Positions 18,526 to 35,998 of a DNA stretch of 64,000 bases are shown here, piece by piece. The position numbers were made by a program, and so were the translations under genes. The stretch lies in the NCBI GenBank assembly GCA_021775415.1, contig JAJFHV010000020.1, positions 62,001-126,000 on the forward strand, given 5' to 3'. Positions within the stretch are counted from its first letter, which is position 1, and the number at the start of each line of letters is the position of its first letter. This DNA is from Hyphomicrobiales bacterium. Its GTDB lineage: Bacteria > Pseudomonadota > Alphaproteobacteria > Rhizobiales > Rhizobiaceae. The notes under the pieces were generated by a model. That model was not told the DNA's origin. It saw nothing but the letters and a program-made list of their open reading frames with translations, and did no database searches.

Positions 18526-18800
18526 TCGACGCTGAATCGCATCGCCGCGCGGGAAAAACAACACCTTGCCGATGTACGGTTCAGATTCAGGTTCAGGTCT
18601 TGGTTCCACCGATCAAGACCCTTCAAACTGAACTGGGCAAGGAACGCGCAGACGTGATATAGCAGGCACTTTCTCTTTTGCTCTCAACTTCCGCTACTGG
18701 CAAAAAATGCCAAGGAAAGGCCTGTCGCAGGCTGATCATTGGGTAAGGGGCACCGGTGTCGGTTTGTCCGCATAGCTGCCCTTAAGCGTTTTGCATGCCA
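18526..18800. other. gap after the cytochrome gene
   Basis: No gene recognised. A worn palindrome unit (TGTCCGCATAGCTG) lies near 18766; the complete A-B-C copy begins at 18801. Together the gap without a gene is 440 bp. Confidence 0.4.
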
Positions 18801-18919
18801 TGTCCGCTTTGGGTCATTTGCGGACATAGCGCGATCTTTATATGACGTCCGTTTTACCCCCGAAAGCGGAAGTGACTGCTCAATCCATTAAGGTCTGCTT
18901 TGTGCCAATTGCGGACATT
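18801..18919. repeat. A-B-C repeat, copy 4 (complete)
   Basis: Module A 18801-18828 (GTCCGCTTTGGGTCATTTGC then GGACAT), B 18844-18871 and C 18891-18919, spacing as in copies 2 and 7. Confidence 0.85.
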
Positions 18920-18965
18920 TGGTAGACTTCACCAAGCCCTCTGTTACGTCGAGCCGGGTAACAGA

Positions 18966-29621: not shown

Positions 29622-29983
29622 TTTTGTATCCACTTCCCTGTTATTTAGCAAGAAAAACAAATATTGATTGATAAACCTTTGTAAAATCAACGGGTTGAGA
29701 AGTTTATTTGTTAGAGAATCGACCAACCAGTTGAAATATTTGAAAACAGTTTTGCCTATCAATGAATTGGTTTCTAACCACAGAGGGTAGCTCAGAATTT
29801 ATGGGTGGAGGTGCCTAATTGAACTCGCACTGCCGCAAATTTTTAGTACCGAACAGTGGAAACAGTTTACCAATCACCGGCCTGACGCTTACTGGAAATG
29901 CTATGCATTTCGCGAACAGGAAATCCGTGTAGCACCCAGGAGGTAATTTACCCGCATAACAGCAATTGATTGGGTTTAATGCC
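29622..29983. other. upstream region of the phosphodiester operon
   Basis: The 535-bp gap between the LacI gene and the methyltransferase holds the operator, AT-rich promoter sequence (29625-29760), the second operator-like site at 29856-29870, and the A-B-C repeat from 29984. A frame from 29801 to 29944 reads like protein (QWKQFTNHRPDAYWKCYAF) but lacks a start codon and is judged a remnant at best. Confidence 0.45.
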
Positions 29984-30103
29984 ATGTCCGCTTTGGGTCA
30001 TTAGCGGACATACAGCAATCTCTATATGACTTCCGCTTTACCCCCAAAAACAGACATTGCCAGTTCAGCTACCTAAGTCCGTTGTGTGCCAATAGCGGAA
30101 TTT
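29984..30103. repeat. A-B-C repeat, copy 6 (complete, best preserved)
   Basis: Module A 29984-30011 (GTCCGCTTTGGGTCATTAGC then GGACAT), B 30028-30057 and C 30075-30103. Adjacent to the stop of the leftward methyltransferase gene. Confidence 0.88.
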
Positions 30104-30133: not shown

Positions 30134-30868
30134 TCAACATTTCGTGGTAACAAGACGATAGCCAAAGTCGCACTCATTAAGATCGAGTAGTTCAGAATAC
30201 CGCTGCTCCCATGCGCCGGTTTCCAGATCGCTGGCAAGTTTTTCCAACTTCGCAGAAACGTCGCCTATCGCCCAGAAGGAAGACATGGCGGCTCGAATTC
30301 TGGGATCGAGATAGGCCACTGGTCGTCGCCAATAGGCGTACAAGAAACCATCAGTACAGTCGTGCGGAATTGGAACGGCCGATATATTTACTAATCCAAG
30401 CCATTTCTCGTAATCTGTCATCCTTGGCATTTGTACTTCGTCCAGCTCCACAAGTTCCGGAATGTAGTCCGCAAGCCAGAACCCCCGATGCGAAGGGTCA
30501 AATGTTAGTATTACGATTGGGCCATGCGTTACTCGACGCATCTCTTTGAGGCCTTTTTCTTTGTCGATCCAATGGTGGACCGTCAGGATCGCCATCGACG
30601 CATCAAAGGAATTGTCATCAAAGGGCAGGTCTTCTGCATAACCCTTAATAACAGTCGCTGCCGACGCATCGCGCTGTTGGATCATTTCGATTGATGGCTC
30701 GATTGCCGTGACTGACCTGTCGGTCGGCTCGTATGACCCCGTTCCGGCACCAACATTCAAAACAGTGTTGGCAGTTCCCAAGGCTTTTGAGATCATCATC
30801 TGAATCCGGGCGTCAGGTTTTCTGAGGTCAGAATAATTGACACCGATTGTATCGTATGAAGTGCGCAT
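30134..30868 (-). CDS. class I SAM-dependent methyltransferase
   Basis: About 244 residues from the ATG at 30868 (an upstream ATG at 30883 adds five). Methyltransferase type 11 fold: the SAM-binding glycine motif VLNVGAGTGSYEP (about 38-50), acidic loop AIEPSIEMI, motif GYAEDLPFDDNSFDASMA, and LTVHHWIDKEKGLKEMRRV after it. No membrane segment. The acceptor is unknown. It is a single gene between two A-B-C repeats. Confidence 0.85.
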   Translation of the reverse strand: MRTSYDTIGVNYSDLRKPDARIQMMISKALGTANTVLNVGAGTGSYEPTDRSVTAIEPSIEMIQQRDASAATVIKGYAEDLPFDDNSFDASMAILTVHHWIDKEKGLKEMRRVTHGPIVILTFDPSHRGFWLADYIPELVELDEVQMPRMTDYEKWLGLVNISAVPIPHDCTDGFLYAYWRRPVAYLDPRIRAAMSSFWAIGDVSAKLEKLASDLETGAWEQRYSELLDLNECDFGYRLVTTKC

Positions 30869-30938
30869 AATGGCCAGTAACATATTGCGGCAATTTTGTC
30901 AGAAGATGTCCGATTTGCAGACAATAGATACAGTTTGT

Positions 30939-31013
30939 CATCTCCGCTTTGGGTCATTAGCGGAAGTCGGCCTGCTGGGTCGTGATGTCTGCTTTACACC
31001 CGAAAGCGGACAT
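30939..31013. repeat. A-B-C repeat, copy 7 (modules A and B)
   Basis: Module A 30939-30967 (CTCCGCTTTGGGTCATTAGC then GGA) and B 30983-31013 (TCTGCTTTACACCCGAAAGC then GGACAT); C is missing. A worn unit GTCCGATTTGCAGAC lies at 30908. Confidence 0.78.
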
Positions 31014-31137
31014 TCCAAACTCGCGATAACATTCAATTATCACGACCCAAATTCCTCTAATTGAGCCAAATTGGTTACACCAAGAAATTTTTGATGCACC
31101 CTACCTGACCCTTCTGATCGCCTTAAATCGATTGTAG

Positions 31138-32045: not shown

Positions 32046-33056
32046 ATGCCGATAAAACTTCCAATCAAAGCAACAGCCGCGTCTAACAAGAACAAAACCC
32101 TAGGCAAAAACGCGACACAGCCAGAGTATCCTGAAACAAAACATCAGATACCAACGCCATTCATTGATAAAATTAGCTTGGTACTAACTCCACCAAATGA
32201 TGAAGATTCATATGAAATCTTCAATGCGGTTTTCTCTGTTGCTGATGACAATACGCTCTTTAGTGATGCTCCAGGGGGCAAAAAAGGCGCTTTTAAGTTT
32301 GCCAAGCGGATAATTCTCAAATCAGTTTTTGACTTCAAACGTTTGCCGCTTTTCCAAATGTCCTATGACAAGCACAAGAAGCAAGCACTCAAGCTTCGGC
32401 TCGAATTCGTACCAGTAGACTTGGGGCCAAAAGGTATGGCGGAGTTGCATGTTGCAGTTAACATGTTCTTCGATGGTGGTTGGGAATATGTGGTCCACCA
32501 TGCACACATTACTCGGATTGATGTGACAGTTGATATACCGGACACCCGAATGGATAGCTTTCTATTCCTCCCTCAACAAGCCGCTACAACGACCCAATGG
32601 CAATACAAGGGTAAGCTCCAGAGCTACTACAGCGGTAAGTCAAAGGGCAATCAAACGAAGATATATGATCGCAAAGCCAAGCGGCTCAGCAAAGGGCAAC
32701 AATGGCCAGGGAAAGCCGCCGTTCGAATTGAGCGCAAATTAATCAACCAGCACAATATGAAGCTATCGGACCTTCATACCCTAGCTAATCCCTTTGCTGG
32801 AATGACAATGACTGAAAACGTTCCGCAACCACCTGACAGTCCGCCCACCAAGAAATGGGTATGGGCGGTATTTTGCGATTCGGTAAAGGTCAGGGGATTA
32901 ACAGACGCACTCGCGTTGTTACCCCAAGCGCAACGGACGAAGTTTCGGAAGTACATCAAAGCAAACCCAATAAGCTGGTGGAAGCCAGATGAGATTTGGA
33001 AAACATGGGGACCGATGCTAGACGAGCTTCAAATCGCCAAATCGAATTGGGAGTGA
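32046..33056 (+). CDS. Rep_trans-like replication initiation protein
   Basis: A 336-residue protein resembling replication initiation factors of rolling-circle plasmids and filamentous phages. The visible conserved pattern is HITRIDVTVDIP (about 155-166), YSGKSKGNQTKIYDRKAKR (about 196-214) and AAVRIERKL (about 225-233). In the family the middle motif positions the Tyr that nicks the origin; Tyr near YDRKAK or YYSGK may serve. The N-terminus is Lys/Asn/Thr-rich. It opens a rightward block with two nuclease-like genes, 150 bp on. It marks a plasmid- or phage-like element now resident in the chromosome. Family membership is by motif pattern only. Confidence 0.6.
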   Translation: MPIKLPIKATAASNKNKTLGKNATQPEYPETKHQIPTPFIDKISLVLTPPNDEDSYEIFNAVFSVADDNTLFSDAPGGKKGAFKFAKRIILKSVFDFKRLPLFQMSYDKHKKQALKLRLEFVPVDLGPKGMAELHVAVNMFFDGGWEYVVHHAHITRIDVTVDIPDTRMDSFLFLPQQAATTTQWQYKGKLQSYYSGKSKGNQTKIYDRKAKRLSKGQQWPGKAAVRIERKLINQHNMKLSDLHTLANPFAGMTMTENVPQPPDSPPTKKWVWAVFCDSVKVRGLTDALALLPQAQRTKFRKYIKANPISWWKPDEIWKTWGPMLDELQIAKSNWE

Positions 33057-33205
33057 CACGTTTCGACCGATGCACTTAACTGCTTTGGTTAGATATTTTG
33101 GTTTGCGCAGACGTTTCCCGTGTATCCTCAATATCGTAACGCAATAGAACAACTGCAATATGGACCCAGTTGAACCAAGGCCAAATTAGTTCAGCGAGGG
33201 AAGAG

Positions 33206-34105
33206 ATGCGCATTACCAAAGATGATTACATTCTTCGCCGGTTGTCCAAGATCAGCAAGAAGAAGTGGGAGTTTTTTGTTATTTCGCGAGTGATTCACAA
33301 ACTTGACGACCCCGATATCGAGTTTGTGACTCAGCAATTGGTGCGAAGGCCAGATGGCGCTCGTGCATTGACCGACATGTTTTTCCCCCAATTCAACTTG
33401 CATCTTGAGATAGACGAAGGTCAACATCTGGACGAATTGCATCGAGAGGCAGACAAACGACGTACCGAGGACATTGTAACAGTCACTAATCACGAAATTC
33501 ACCGCATTGCAGCTGCCCAGCGAATTGATGAAATCACTATTCAAGATTTTCCACTAAAAACGGTTGCTACGGATACGGACAATTTTATCGAGAAGATACG
33601 GGCCCTAAAAATGGCGGGGCTAGAAGATGGTAGTTTTCTCCCTTGGGATTTTAAACACCGACATGACCCGGAACGGCACATCAGAGCCGGTTATATTAGC
33701 GCGAAAGAGAATATTGTGTTTGAACGTCAAAGCGATGCCCTCCGATGTTTTGGCTATCGCGGTGGAAACTACCAAAAAGGGGCTTGGCAGATACCGGATG
33801 GATCGAACGATGTAGTATGGTTCCCAAGACTATTCACCCATGGCGATTGGGAAAATGAACTCACCCCCGACGGTAAAATCATCTACGAGCGTTCTACCAC
33901 AAACAATTCACAGGCGTGGGAGGAGAAATATCAGGACAATAAGTATGATCAAGGCAATCGGATAGTATTTGCCAAAGCAAAAGACCCGCTCGGATATAGC
34001 CTATATCGCTATGTAGGTACCTTCAAAAAAAACAAGGAACATTCGAAGGGTTCGCAAACGCAATTTAATCTCGTCCACGATAAGGAGGCAATACGTCTTC
34101 CCTAA
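33206..34105 (+). CDS. PvuRts1I/AbaSI-type modification-dependent restriction endonuclease
   Basis: A 299-residue protein from the ATG at 33206 (GAGGGAAGAG just upstream); a start at 33170 is less likely. The N-terminal half has the pattern of the PvuRts1I/AbaSI family: ISKKKWEFFVISRVIHKLDD, PDIEFVTQQLVRR, and LTDMFFPQFNLHLEIDEGQH, in which Asp57, Glu68, Asp70 and Glu71 fit a PD-(D/E)XK or Vsr-like nuclease core. The C-terminal part (IVFAKAKDPLGYSLYRYVG) matches the SRA-like base-flipping end. Family enzymes cut DNA carrying 5-hydroxymethyl- or glucosylated hydroxymethyl-cytosine, so they restrict T-even-like phages without a partner methylase. Length matches the family (about 300). The next gene starts 24 bp on. 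Confidence 0.78.
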   Translation: MRITKDDYILRRLSKISKKKWEFFVISRVIHKLDDPDIEFVTQQLVRRPDGARALTDMFFPQFNLHLEIDEGQHLDELHREADKRRTEDIVTVTNHEIHRIAAAQRIDEITIQDFPLKTVATDTDNFIEKIRALKMAGLEDGSFLPWDFKHRHDPERHIRAGYISAKENIVFERQSDALRCFGYRGGNYQKGAWQIPDGSNDVVWFPRLFTHGDWENELTPDGKIIYERSTTNNSQAWEEKYQDNKYDQGNRIVFAKAKDPLGYSLYRYVGTFKKNKEHSKGSQTQFNLVHDKEAIRLP

Positions 34106-34129
34106 AAGTAAATTTGGTGGGTACTGAAT

Positions 34130-35014
34130 ATGACTAGAAGATCAACCGCAGAAGCAGCAACGCATCTTTATGGGGATATGCCCTATCACCAAAGAGCACA
34201 AGAAGCCCTTCCTATTCTAGTTCGGCAAGCAATAGCAGGTAAGGAGTTGACTTACGGACAACTTGCCTTGGAATTGGGAATGCCAAACCCGCGAAACTTA
34301 AACTTCCCGCTCGGCAGTGTTGGAACCACCCTACTGGCATTGAGTGAAGAAATGGGGATCAATATTCCCCCAATTCAATGCTTAGTGATTAACCAAAAGG
34401 ACAGGCTGCCGGGTGAAGGCATTGCTTGGTTCTTGAAAGACCGTCTGTTGGCAAACTTCACCAGTCTTTCAAAAAAAGAAAAGCATCAGATTGTCCAAGT
34501 GATGCACAAGGAAATTTTTGCATTCAAAAAATGGCATGCCGTCTTGGGGCAACTTGATCTTGTGCCTTCGACCGATGATTTTCATGACCTAATTGATAGT
34601 GCAGGCAATTCGGGTGGACATAAGGAGAGCGAAGATCACATAAGGCTTAAACTTTTCGTCGCCAATTATCCGGCGTTGTTTGGCATTGAAAGTGATCATC
34701 ATGGGCACGACGAGGTTCGACTGCCGTCTGCTGATAGATTGGATGTCTCGTTCTATACACGAAGTAAGTGGATCGCTGTAGAAGTAAAATCGAAAAAGTC
34801 GGATGAAGGCGACATAACCCGAGGCCTCTTCCAGTGCATCAAATATGGTGCTGTGATGACCGCAGATTTGGGCGCGCGTGGAATAGAAAGGTCCGTGAGA
34901 GCACTATTGGTTGTTGAGCAGAAGCTGCCCTCCAAATTGGTAAAGCTGGCGCACACATTAGGCGTCGAATTTGTTGAGGTTTCTAAAACTGAGGATGGCT
35001 ACGAGATCATTTGA
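34130..35014 (+). CDS. PD-(D/E)XK nuclease-like protein with N-terminal winged-helix
   Basis: A 294-residue protein of unrecognised family. Residues about 17-70 (QRAQEALPILVRQAIAGKEL, TYGQLALELGMPNPRNLN) look like a winged helix. Residues about 160-290 show a restriction-endonuclease-like core: a Glu in GGHKESEDH (about 163-170), Asp205 in RLDVSF, and IAVEVKSKK with Glu218 and Lys220, followed by a helix GLFQCIKYGAVM. That is the D-(X12)-E-X-K signature. It follows the PvuRts1I-like gene by 24 bp, presumably in one transcript, so the two could form a single defence module. No membrane segments. Confidence 0.65.
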   Translation: MTRRSTAEAATHLYGDMPYHQRAQEALPILVRQAIAGKELTYGQLALELGMPNPRNLNFPLGSVGTTLLALSEEMGINIPPIQCLVINQKDRLPGEGIAWFLKDRLLANFTSLSKKEKHQIVQVMHKEIFAFKKWHAVLGQLDLVPSTDDFHDLIDSAGNSGGHKESEDHIRLKLFVANYPALFGIESDHHGHDEVRLPSADRLDVSFYTRSKWIAVEVKSKKSDEGDITRGLFQCIKYGAVMTADLGARGIERSVRALLVVEQKLPSKLVKLAHTLGVEFVEVSKTEDGYEII

Positions 35015-35296
35015 TCCGCATCTTACATAATCCGTCCAGTAGGCGCTGATGTCAGACACGAAGCTGGACACACGCATTCTCCAAATGAATATGCGACATT
35101 TGTTTGTCTCAATGCTGGCGTCTAGAACTAATTAGGCGAATTTTTGCAATCCACACGGATCGCAGAAATTTTTGAATAAATTCCCTTTTGGTATGGGCCA
35201 TTGGTTTGCCAATTCAGGAAGCGTTCAGGTTGCGTTCGGGGACAATGGCCTGGATGGTGAAGTAAATGTTGGTGCATGCAACAAACGGAGATACCC

Positions 35297-35998
35297 ATGA
35301 ACACCAAAAAACGCGATCCTGCTTTTATAGCGGAACAGGTAAAATTCATTAGAAAGATGTATTCTTTCACACAGGAAAACTTGGCTGACGCATCTGGATT
35401 GACGGTCAGGACAATCCAAAAAATTGAAAGTGGCAGACATATTCCGGATGAACAAACACTACGGAGTATAGGTCGTACGGTTCAGGTTGATGTTTCAATC
35501 TTTGACAAACCTTCCCCCGAACAGGTGGATCGTCAAAGGGCAGAGTTGGAACGTGCACGAAAACGAACGGTAGTGGTCCCTATAACTCCGATCAAGTTTG
35601 CGCATGATTTTCTTGGTGCTTTCGATATGCGCCATGCATTTCGGTTTGATACGTCGGCAATCGACAACGATGAAGCGCTATCAATCGCTTGCGGGATGGG
35701 TGACTGGATAAGGGATTTCAATGATGTTTGGGATGAATGTTACATGTCGCAGCGATTGGATTATGCAACACAGTTTGTAGGCCTGTGTGAACAAGTGGGC
35801 GAATATGGATTTACCTGTTTCATCGGAAATCACATGCAGCAATTGAAGGAAAAAGACCGATCAACGTTAGTTTTTAACGTTGGATTGATGACGTTTCTGC
35901 CAACTGACCAATCTGGTAAATTAAGGTATGGGTTGGTCCAACTTGAGGGAGGATGGGAGTGTTTGGAAAAAGATAAGATAGGCGGACTAACTGCTTAA
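35297..35998 (+). CDS. XRE family transcriptional regulator
   Basis: A 233-residue protein from the ATG at 35297 (GGAG 6 nt upstream). Residues about 15-65 are a Cro/C1-type helix-turn-helix (VKFIRKMYSFTQENLADASG, LTVRTIQKIESGR). The C-terminal ~150 residues have no recognised fold; they are acidic and aromatic (MGDWIRDFNDVWDECY). It ends the island's gene block, 155 bp before the 18-bp tRNA-Met-derived repeat. A plausible control gene of the element. Confidence 0.78.
   Translation: MNTKKRDPAFIAEQVKFIRKMYSFTQENLADASGLTVRTIQKIESGRHIPDEQTLRSIGRTVQVDVSIFDKPSPEQVDRQRAELERARKRTVVVPITPIKFAHDFLGAFDMRHAFRFDTSAIDNDEALSIACGMGDWIRDFNDVWDECYMSQRLDYATQFVGLCEQVGEYGFTCFIGNHMQQLKEKDRSTLVFNVGLMTFLPTDQSGKLRYGLVQLEGGWECLEKDKIGGLTA

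What the first reader, a model, noticed from the sequence alone, without database searches (positions are those of the whole stretch)
33206..35014. PvuRts1I/AbaSI-like endonuclease coupled to an undescribed winged-helix PD-(D/E)XK protein
Seen: the first protein keeps the whole N-terminal pattern of the modification-dependent family (ISKKKWE..., FVTQQLVRR, LTDMFFPQF..., LEIDEGQH) and an SRA-like end. The second starts 24 bp downstream and carries D205, E218 and K220 in a D-x12-E-x-K nuclease core. Known: PvuRts1I-type enzymes act alone on hydroxymethylated or glucosylated cytosine. Inferred: the pair may be a two-nuclease anti-phage module in which the second protein extends or controls the first. 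I know of no described system with this pair.
Basis: partly seen in the sequence, partly recalled or inferred. Interest (0 to 1): 0.75.

Follow-up and report, generated by a model that had tools for sequence, protein, structure and literature searches.

The report
Two unrelated phage-DNA-cutting enzyme genes
Two neighbouring bacterial genes look like separate phage-DNA-cutting enzymes: one of a known kind that reads hydroxymethylated cytosine, one from an apparently unnamed family; they sit together here but in none of the related loci examined, so they do not look like one fixed system.

Summary
The two ORFs are real. P1 (33206-34105) is a textbook PvuRts1I/AbaSI-family enzyme: both Pfam domains over cut-off, closest solved sequences PvuRts1I and AbaSI, and the mapped catalytic and main pocket residues kept. 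P2 (34130-35014) starts 24 bp downstream and matches no curated family over cut-off. Its predicted structure has a helical N-terminal domain whose best, weak, matches are the winged helix of MGMT/ATL DNA-repair proteins (alkyl-accepting Cys absent), and a C-terminal PD-(D/E)XK domain resembling NucS/EndoMS, with D205, E218, K220 and Q235xxxY239 invariant in 11 aligned members.
The claimed coupling fails its own test: 0 of 70 GTDB loci, 0 of 6 viral contigs and 0 of 7 plasmid loci with P1 relatives carry a P2 relative, and 0 of 24 P2 loci carry a P1 relative. P2 relatives sit between type III-like res and mod genes (4 of 24), beside AIPR-like genes (2), or in other settings. P2's N-terminal domain also occurs alone and joined to an HNH nuclease resembling phosphorothioate-dependent enzymes.
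Best reading: two independent restriction nucleases side by side; P2 is an unnamed winged-helix-like + PD-(D/E)XK family, probably a defence endonuclease.

The parts
33206..34105 (+). P1: PvuRts1I/AbaSI-family modification-dependent endonuclease, 299 aa
   Evidence: Pfam PvuRts1I-like_N 1.8e-30 and SRA 5.4e-28; PDB PvuRts1I 1.8e-56, AbaSI 1.7e-52; PADLOC mREase_II 4.3e-91
33224..33544 (+). P1 N-terminal variant PD-(D/E)XK domain (Pfam match residues 7-113); E22, D57, E68, D70 at the catalytic positions
   Evidence: residue mapping onto PvuRts1I with the residues named in PMC4027163
33677..34060 (+). P1 SRA domain (Pfam match residues 158-285); pocket W205, P207, W215, N217, E228 kept
   Evidence: mapping, pocket named in PMC4027163
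34106..34129 (+). 24-bp gap between P1 and P2; no promoter-like or terminator-like site listed here
34130..35014 (+). P2: winged-helix-like domain + PD-(D/E)XK protein, 294 aa, no curated family over cut-off
   Evidence: family alignment; model
34166..34603 (+). P2 N-terminal domain (residues 13-158 as modelled), MGMT/ATL-like winged helix by weak but one-sided fold matches; Y42 invariant, no Cys at the PCHR position
34616..35011 (+). P2 C-terminal PD-(D/E)XK nuclease domain (residues 163-294), nearest solved folds NucS/EndoMS
   Evidence: 2vld Z 12.1, 107 aligned, rmsd 2.5; 5gke Z 11.8, 109 aligned, rmsd 2.8
34742..34789 (+). P2 catalytic core D205 (34742-34744), E218 (34781-34783), K220 (34787-34789)
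   Evidence: sequence; invariant in 11 of 11 rows
34832..34846 (+). P2 Q235-x3-Y239, a further invariant nuclease-domain motif (QxxxY, a label recalled from RecB/Cas4-like nucleases)

Best explanation
P1 is a PvuRts1I/AbaSI-type enzyme: its SRA domain reads 5hmC or glucosyl-5hmC in phage DNA and its variant PD-(D/E)XK domain cuts at a distance. P2 is a second, independent nuclease: an N-terminal MGMT/ATL-like winged-helix domain binds DNA (possibly reading a base modification) and a C-terminal NucS-like PD-(D/E)XK domain cuts. The two genes were brought together by horizontal transfer as a small defence cluster, possibly co-transcribed, and add to each other's target range without forming one complex. 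Shown here: family of P1, conserved residues of both, two-part predicted build of P2, no recurrent linkage in the loci examined. Inferred: activity of P1, DNA cleavage by P2, its role in defence, its sensor function, horizontal transfer, co-transcription.
For: P1; catalytic and main pocket residues kept (with PMC4027163 passages). P2: D205, E218, K220, Q235 and Y239 invariant in 11 of 11 rows; the nuclease domain matches NucS/EndoMS in the top three VIA rows, Z 12.1, 11.8, 10.2; the N-terminal domain's best matches are MGMT/ATL in 15 of the top 16 VIA rows, Z 6.1-5.2, and in the top 9 Foldseek rows. No linkage: 0 of 70, 0 of 6, 0 of 7 P1 loci carry P2; 0 of 24 P2 loci carry P1. Some P2 relatives lie in restriction settings: between res and mod (L005, L130, L131, L132), beside AIPR-like genes (L095, L127). 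The N-terminal module also occurs fused to HNH (L112; Pfam HNH_2 2.3e-14; NCBIfam PT-DNA_restrict 3.7e-19 over the C-terminal half only, 68.9 bits against a cut-off of 180) and alone at about 115 aa. Patchy occurrence: P1 in 0 of 60 other genomes drawn as relatives; P2 in 3 of 384 other genomes of the class by single sequence, 4 of 384 by profile, one of these a match to the N-terminal half only.
Against: The 24-bp gap and same strand are what a true two-gene system would show. The N-terminal fold matches are weak: Foldseek E 0.6 and worse, Z about 6, under the 8 below which the tool's note says a match may be only a common arrangement; PF01035 hits P2 at E 1.16 only; hhalign against the own-genome MGMT copies gives 24% over 26 columns; stand-alone relatives of the domain hit general HTH models or VMAP-M0 under cut-off and list no PF01035. 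For the whole model Foldseek has no match at E <= 0.001 and its first rows are nickase N.BspD6I and an R2 retrotransposon protein, not NucS. GC is low around the genes but also at 39.5-41.5 kb, so it is poor evidence of transfer.
Confidence: 0.72

Rival explanations
1. P1 and P2 form one two-nuclease anti-phage module in which P2 extends or controls P1.
For: Same strand, 24 bp apart; both nuclease-like. P1 relatives in other lineages do sit close to other DNA enzymes (UvrD helicase with PDDEXK_1 in L019 and L024; DUF2779 in L045 and L074).
Against: 0 of 83 P1 loci carry a P2 relative and 0 of 24 P2 loci a P1 relative; the profiles of the two proteins show no similarity.
Confidence: 0.06
2. P2 is a nuclease borrowed from a type III-like restriction-modification operon, where some relatives sit between res and mod; here it is an orphan with little or no function of its own.
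For: Homologues lie between res and mod in L005, L130, L131 and L132.
Against: Those are the more distant members (L005 is 27% identical to P2); the six nearer rows of the alignment (37-47%) lie in L002, L003, L092, L094, L095 and L099, of which none of the five whose neighbours were listed shows res and mod beside the gene (L099 not listed). P2 is intact and keeps every invariant residue.
Confidence: 0.12
3. P2 is a DNA-repair endonuclease: an ATL-like lesion-binding domain tied to a NucS-like nuclease, by analogy with the ATL/AGT-EndoV fusions of archaea.
For: Both predicted domains resemble repair folds; AGT-EndoV and ATL-EndoV fusions are described (PMC10779285, passages).
Against: Patchy occurrence (3 of 384 other genomes in the class), presence on viral-collection contigs and R-M neighbours fit defence better than housekeeping repair.
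Confidence: 0.1

Closest known systems
PvuRts1I / AbaSI (type IV, 5hmC- and glucosyl-5hmC-dependent endonucleases)
   Same: P1: both domains, catalytic E22/D57/E68/D70, pocket W205/P207/W215/N217/E228
   Different: 37-42% identity to the five members aligned; A237 where PvuRts1I has Y237, a candidate contact in the paper (in a gapped part of the alignment); neighbour P2 not found beside the other members examined
Winged-helix fusion endonucleases (DpnI, HhiV4I, FcyTI, Psp4BI; PMC11037411, abstract, section 14 and part 1 of section 3 read)
   Same: P2 works like them on paper: a winged-helix-like domain fused to a nuclease; PD-(D/E)XK and HNH versions of the same N-terminal module exist
   Different: P2 has the helical domain first and the nuclease last (the paper's PD-(D/E)XK-wH enzymes are named the other way round); its best fold matches are MGMT/ATL (DpnI simply not listed); 6mA dependence untested
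MGMT / ATL alkyltransferase-like winged helix
   Same: Best fold matches of the N-terminal domain; Y42 in a TYGQLA motif that aligns with TYSDIA and SYGDIA of the own-genome MGMT copies
   Different: Pro, His or Leu where PCHR has Cys (ATL: Trp, from PMC10779285 passages); no alkyl transfer expected
NucS/EndoMS mismatch endonuclease (the name NucS for 2vld is recalled)
   Same: C-terminal PD-(D/E)XK fold, Z 12.1 over 107 residues
   Different: 18% identity over that stretch; the N-terminal half of P2 is a helical domain with other best matches
Phosphorothioate-dependent (SBD-HNH) restriction enzymes
   Same: The HNH half of the sister architecture L112 resembles them
   Different: P2 itself has PD-(D/E)XK, and L112 has the P2-like domain where, as I infer, the sulfur-binding domain would be

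Membership tests
PvuRts1I/AbaSI family (P1) | N-terminal PvuRts1I-like domain over Pfam cut-off | tested here: met
   PF21598 106.2 bits, cut-off 27
PvuRts1I/AbaSI family (P1) | C-terminal SRA domain over Pfam cut-off | tested here: met
   PF18491 98.2 bits, cut-off 30.2
PvuRts1I/AbaSI family (P1) | Catalytic E20, D57, E68 (and D70) of PvuRts1I | tested here: met
   E22, D57, E68, D70 (residues from PMC4027163)
PvuRts1I/AbaSI family (P1) | Base pocket W205, P207, W215, N217, E228 | tested here: met
   all five identical (pocket)
PvuRts1I/AbaSI family (P1) | Cleavage of 5hmC/5ghmC DNA, not of C or 5mC DNA | not testable with these tools
   biochemistry needed
PD-(D/E)XK nuclease superfamily (P2) | PD-(D/E)XK fold with D...ExK in place | tested here: met
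   model residues 163-294 match NucS/EndoMS, Card1/Can2, BsoBI, BamHI, FokI and others; D205/E218/K220 invariant
MGMT/ATL (P2 N-terminal domain) | MGMT/ATL winged-helix fold | tested here: inconclusive
   one-sided best matches but weak scores; stand-alone relatives hit other HTH models weakly
MGMT/ATL (P2 N-terminal domain) | PCHR cysteine (MGMT) or PWHR tryptophan (ATL) | tested here: not met
   P, H or L at that place in the 11 rows, placed by motif reading, with the own-genome MGMT copies for comparison
Winged-helix 6mA-dependent endonucleases (DpnI type) | wH domain homologous to that of DpnI | tested here: inconclusive
   DpnI is not among the rows shown, which is no proof of absence
Winged-helix 6mA-dependent endonucleases (DpnI type) | 6mA-dependent cleavage | not testable with these tools
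   biochemistry needed
NucS/EndoMS (P2) | NucS-type nuclease domain fold | tested here: met
   top three VIA rows, Z 12.1, 11.8, 10.2; a shared fold, not proof of the family
NucS/EndoMS (P2) | NucS N-terminal domain | tested here: inconclusive
   only about residues 163-294 were aligned; the N-terminal model finds other folds

The most novel reading that the evidence does not exclude
P2 founds an unnamed class of modification-dependent nuclease in which an MGMT/ATL-like, base-flipping winged helix serves as the sensor (perhaps for a modified guanine or thymine of phage DNA) and is swapped between PD-(D/E)XK and HNH nucleases; beside P1 it would give the host two sensors for differently hypermodified phages.
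Probability: 0.2. Interest if true: 0.72.

Novelty: new variant of a known kind. Interest (0 to 1): 0.4.

Why it matters
P1 adds a diverged, apparently intact 5hmC/5ghmC nuclease. P2 draws attention to an uncurated family that in part sits in restriction loci and whose N-terminal module is shared between two kinds of nuclease. If that module reads modified bases, it would be a further kind of sensor for type IV restriction and a possible tool for mapping other DNA modifications. The negative result on linkage also keeps a two-gene 'system' that was not seen to recur out of defence catalogues.

Tried and rejected
Pair as a module: tested both ways and rejected. P2 as an MGMT/ATL enzyme: no Cys at the active position. 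P2 homologous to P1: no. P2 in Pfam, NCBIfam, PADLOC or PHROGs: nothing over cut-off; weak Tox-REase-9 match in 4 of 11 family members, best E 0.00072. P2 in annotated phages: no match. P2 against PDB sequences: nothing useful. DpnI was not among the rows shown for the N-terminal model; I do not read that as absence. GC as proof of transfer: windows of 1 kb starting at 31-36 kb have 43.5-47.5%, but those starting at 39.5-40.5 kb have 46-47% too, so I give it little weight.

Gene upstream (32046-33056): from recalled motifs I suspected a filamentous-phage-type replication initiator. Tests gave nothing: no Pfam match over cut-off and no PHROG match, no phage or plasmid match, no viral contig by its peptide patterns, 0 of 198 other genomes in the order, Rep_trans PF02486 not found in the genome. 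Left as unknown.

Synteny with same-genus genomes by DNA: one match of about 470 bp in one of 11 other genomes, so the insertion boundaries could not be drawn. A scan of viral contigs with the N-terminal alignment was not possible, no conserved stretch. Two further viral scans with the P2 subgroups added no new contig.

Literature: the listings show no title or shown abstract start that describes the P1-P2 pair or a P2-like family; I opened PMC11037411 (outline with abstract, section 14, section 3 part 1 of 2), PMC4027163 (passages), PMC10779285 (passages) and PMC12839542 (passages). Most subscription papers are not held.

Full report
Observation. The window holds two intact forward ORFs at the stated place. 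P1 runs 33206-34105 (ATG; a TTG start at 33170 would add 12 residues) and P2 34130-35014, 24 bp apart. The quoted residues are there: D205, twelve residues, E218, K220.

P1. Pfam finds PvuRts1I-like_N (E 1.8e-30) and SRA (5.4e-28), both far above cut-off. The three distinct solved sequences matched at E <= 1 are PvuRts1I (4oq2, 4oky; 1.8e-56 and 1.9e-56) and AbaSI (4par; 1.7e-52). PADLOC lists it as a type II methyl-directed enzyme, E 4.3e-91. Mapped on PvuRts1I, the catalytic E20, D57, E68 and D70 and the pocket W205, P207, W215, N217 and E228 are all kept; R208 and R244 are kept; Y237 is Ala in a gapped part of the alignment (residues taken from passages of PMC4027163). Hence a 5hmC/5ghmC-dependent cutter is the expected activity; cleavage itself is untested.

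P2. No curated family reaches its cut-off (family members). Relatives came from plasmid records (6 records, one of them matched over 47% only), viral contigs (9 loci, L092, L093 and L099 nearly alike, L096 and L097 interrupted) and genomes. Eleven full-length members align; E166, H170, D202, D205, E218, K220, R231, Q235, K238 and Y239 are among the invariant columns. An AlphaFold2 model from 7 rows has mean pLDDT 83.3 and pTM 0.62. Residues 163-294 form a PD-(D/E)XK domain; the best VIA rows are NucS/EndoMS (2vld Z 12.1 over 107 residues, rmsd 2.5; 5gke Z 11.8; 5gkj Z 10.2), followed by other PD-(D/E)XK folds. Foldseek alone gave no match at E <= 0.001; its first rows, from E 1.6e-3, are nickase N.BspD6I, an R2 retrotransposon protein and viral cap-snatching endonucleases.

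The N-terminal domain was modelled alone (mean pLDDT 86.6). The top nine Foldseek rows are O6-methylguanine methyltransferases, at E 0.6-1.1, and 15 of the top 16 VIA rows are MGMT or ATL at Z 6.1-5.2. These scores are weak by the tool's own yardstick; what speaks for them is that they point one way. In support: one of 11 members hits the MGMT domain PF01035 at E 0.1, the own-genome search with PF01035 lists P2 last of five matches at E 1.16, and hhalign aligns the TYGQLA stretch of P2 with the own-genome MGMT copies at 24% probability over 26 columns. Against: six stand-alone or longer relatives of the domain scanned against Pfam gave only under-cut-off hits to VMAP-M0 (best 0.00047) and general HTH models (best 0.0004), and no PF01035. 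The alkyl-accepting Cys is absent: the place of PCHR reads PPIQ, PHIQ, PPLQ, PLIN or PPIN in the 11 members (by motif reading). So P2 is not an alkyltransferase; a DNA-binding, perhaps base-reading, winged helix is an inference.

Modularity. A profile of the N-terminal domain finds it in 18 of 398 genomes of the phylum at E <= 0.001, own genome included. Besides P2-like proteins there are stand-alone proteins of about 110-121 aa (L149, L151, L153, L157, L160) and a fusion to HNH (L112, the same protein as L152). The HNH half of L112 matches HNH_2 (2.3e-14) and, over its C-terminal half, the phosphorothioate-dependent restriction enzyme model of NCBIfam (3.7e-19, 68.9 bits, under that model's cut-off of 180). 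The same front end on two kinds of nuclease is the layout of NTP-independent modification-dependent enzymes as described in PMC11037411 (abstract, section 14, section 3 part 1). It is an argument from architecture, not a demonstration.

Are they a pair? A profile of P1 found 70 loci in GTDB genomes, 65 of them with at least 1 kb downstream, 66 with at least 1 kb upstream and 48 with at least 3 kb on both sides, and 6 in viral contigs, four of them nearly alike; 7 of the 49 plasmid records were fetched. By tblastn and by hmmsearch with the P2 profiles none of these 83 carries a P2 relative; the own locus is found as a positive control at E 4.9e-116. Conversely 24 P2 loci besides the own (6 plasmid, 9 viral, 9 genome; several partial, interrupted or on short contigs) carry no P1 relative. 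In the 60 other genomes drawn as relatives there is no P1 at E <= 1e-5.

Company kept by P2 relatives. In L005 (annotated), L130 and L131 the gene lies between a type III-like res and a DNA methyltransferase gene (Pfam: ResIII 2.4e-10 for the L131 res, N6_N4_Mtase 5.5e-32 for the L130 methyltransferase; the longer piece of the L130 res matched only RE_endonuc at 0.008, under cut-off; the L131 methyltransferase and all of L132 were judged by sequence similarity, not run). In L095 and L127 an AIPR-like gene follows (AIPR 0.0039 and 6e-05, both under cut-off), and L127 also has a type ISP enzyme nearby (2e-67). Of the other 18 of the 24, 15 were read as ORF lists or annotation: L003 has two genes annotated as Abi family upstream, L007 a DNA methyltransferase two genes upstream, and I saw no partner shared among them. 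L093, L097 and L099 were searched for P1 but their neighbours were not listed.

Local setting. GC is 43.5-47.5% in 1-kb windows starting at 31-36 kb, 49.6-53.8% in those starting at 26-28.5 kb and 50.6-51.4% at 37.5-38.5 kb, but 46-47% again at 39.5-40.5 kb; it fits an acquired patch without showing one. No promoter-like or terminator-like site lies in the gap; the scan finds such sites no more often than shuffles do, so it proves little. Co-transcription is plausible and untested. The gene downstream (35276-35998) is an HTH regulator (HTH_3 8.8e-09); any link to P1-P2 is speculation.

Conclusion. P1 is a new member of a known family. P2 belongs to a family unnamed in the four libraries searched and built like a modification-dependent nuclease. 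The link between them is local as far as could be searched.

Noticed in passing
L018, L029, L070, L076 (beside the P1 relative): PvuRts1I-family genes lie directly beside ADP-ribosylglycohydrolase genes in 4 of 83 P1 loci (gaps 46, 12, -8 and 9 bp; PF03747 E 8e-67 or better in all four), in records titled Porphyrobacter, Bacteroidetes and two Bacilli. Not tested against chance; no paper in the library holds both terms.
   Followed up: partly
L019, L024, L082: PvuRts1I-family genes follow a large UvrD-like helicase gene (gaps 139, -4 and 12 bp; UvrD and PDDEXK_1 confirmed by Pfam for L019 and L024, L082 by BLAST clustering).
   Followed up: partly
L045, L062, L074: PvuRts1I-family genes next to a DUF2779 gene (gaps -8, -8 and 25 bp; Pfam run for L045 and L074, L062 by BLAST clustering; L045 and L062 have similar surroundings).
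   Followed up: partly
L088-L091: Viral-collection contigs of up to 373 kb carry a PvuRts1I-family gene, so very large phages may use this nuclease themselves.
   Followed up: no
window 29979-30103 and 30936-31015: Short dispersed repeats on either side of a methyltransferase-like gene (30134-30883), with 75-89% identical copies elsewhere in the genome, one of them at window 18795-18920.
   Followed up: no
window 32046-33056: 336-aa orphan gene upstream of P1; no relative found in annotated phages, plasmids, viral contigs (by peptide patterns) or 198 other genomes of the order.
   Followed up: partly
L149, L151, L153, L157, L160: Stand-alone proteins of about 110-121 aa related to the P2 N-terminal domain occur in several genomes of the window's phylum; function unknown.
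   Followed up: partly
L096 and L097: P2 relatives on viral-collection contigs whose reading frame is interrupted.
   Followed up: no
   Followed up: no
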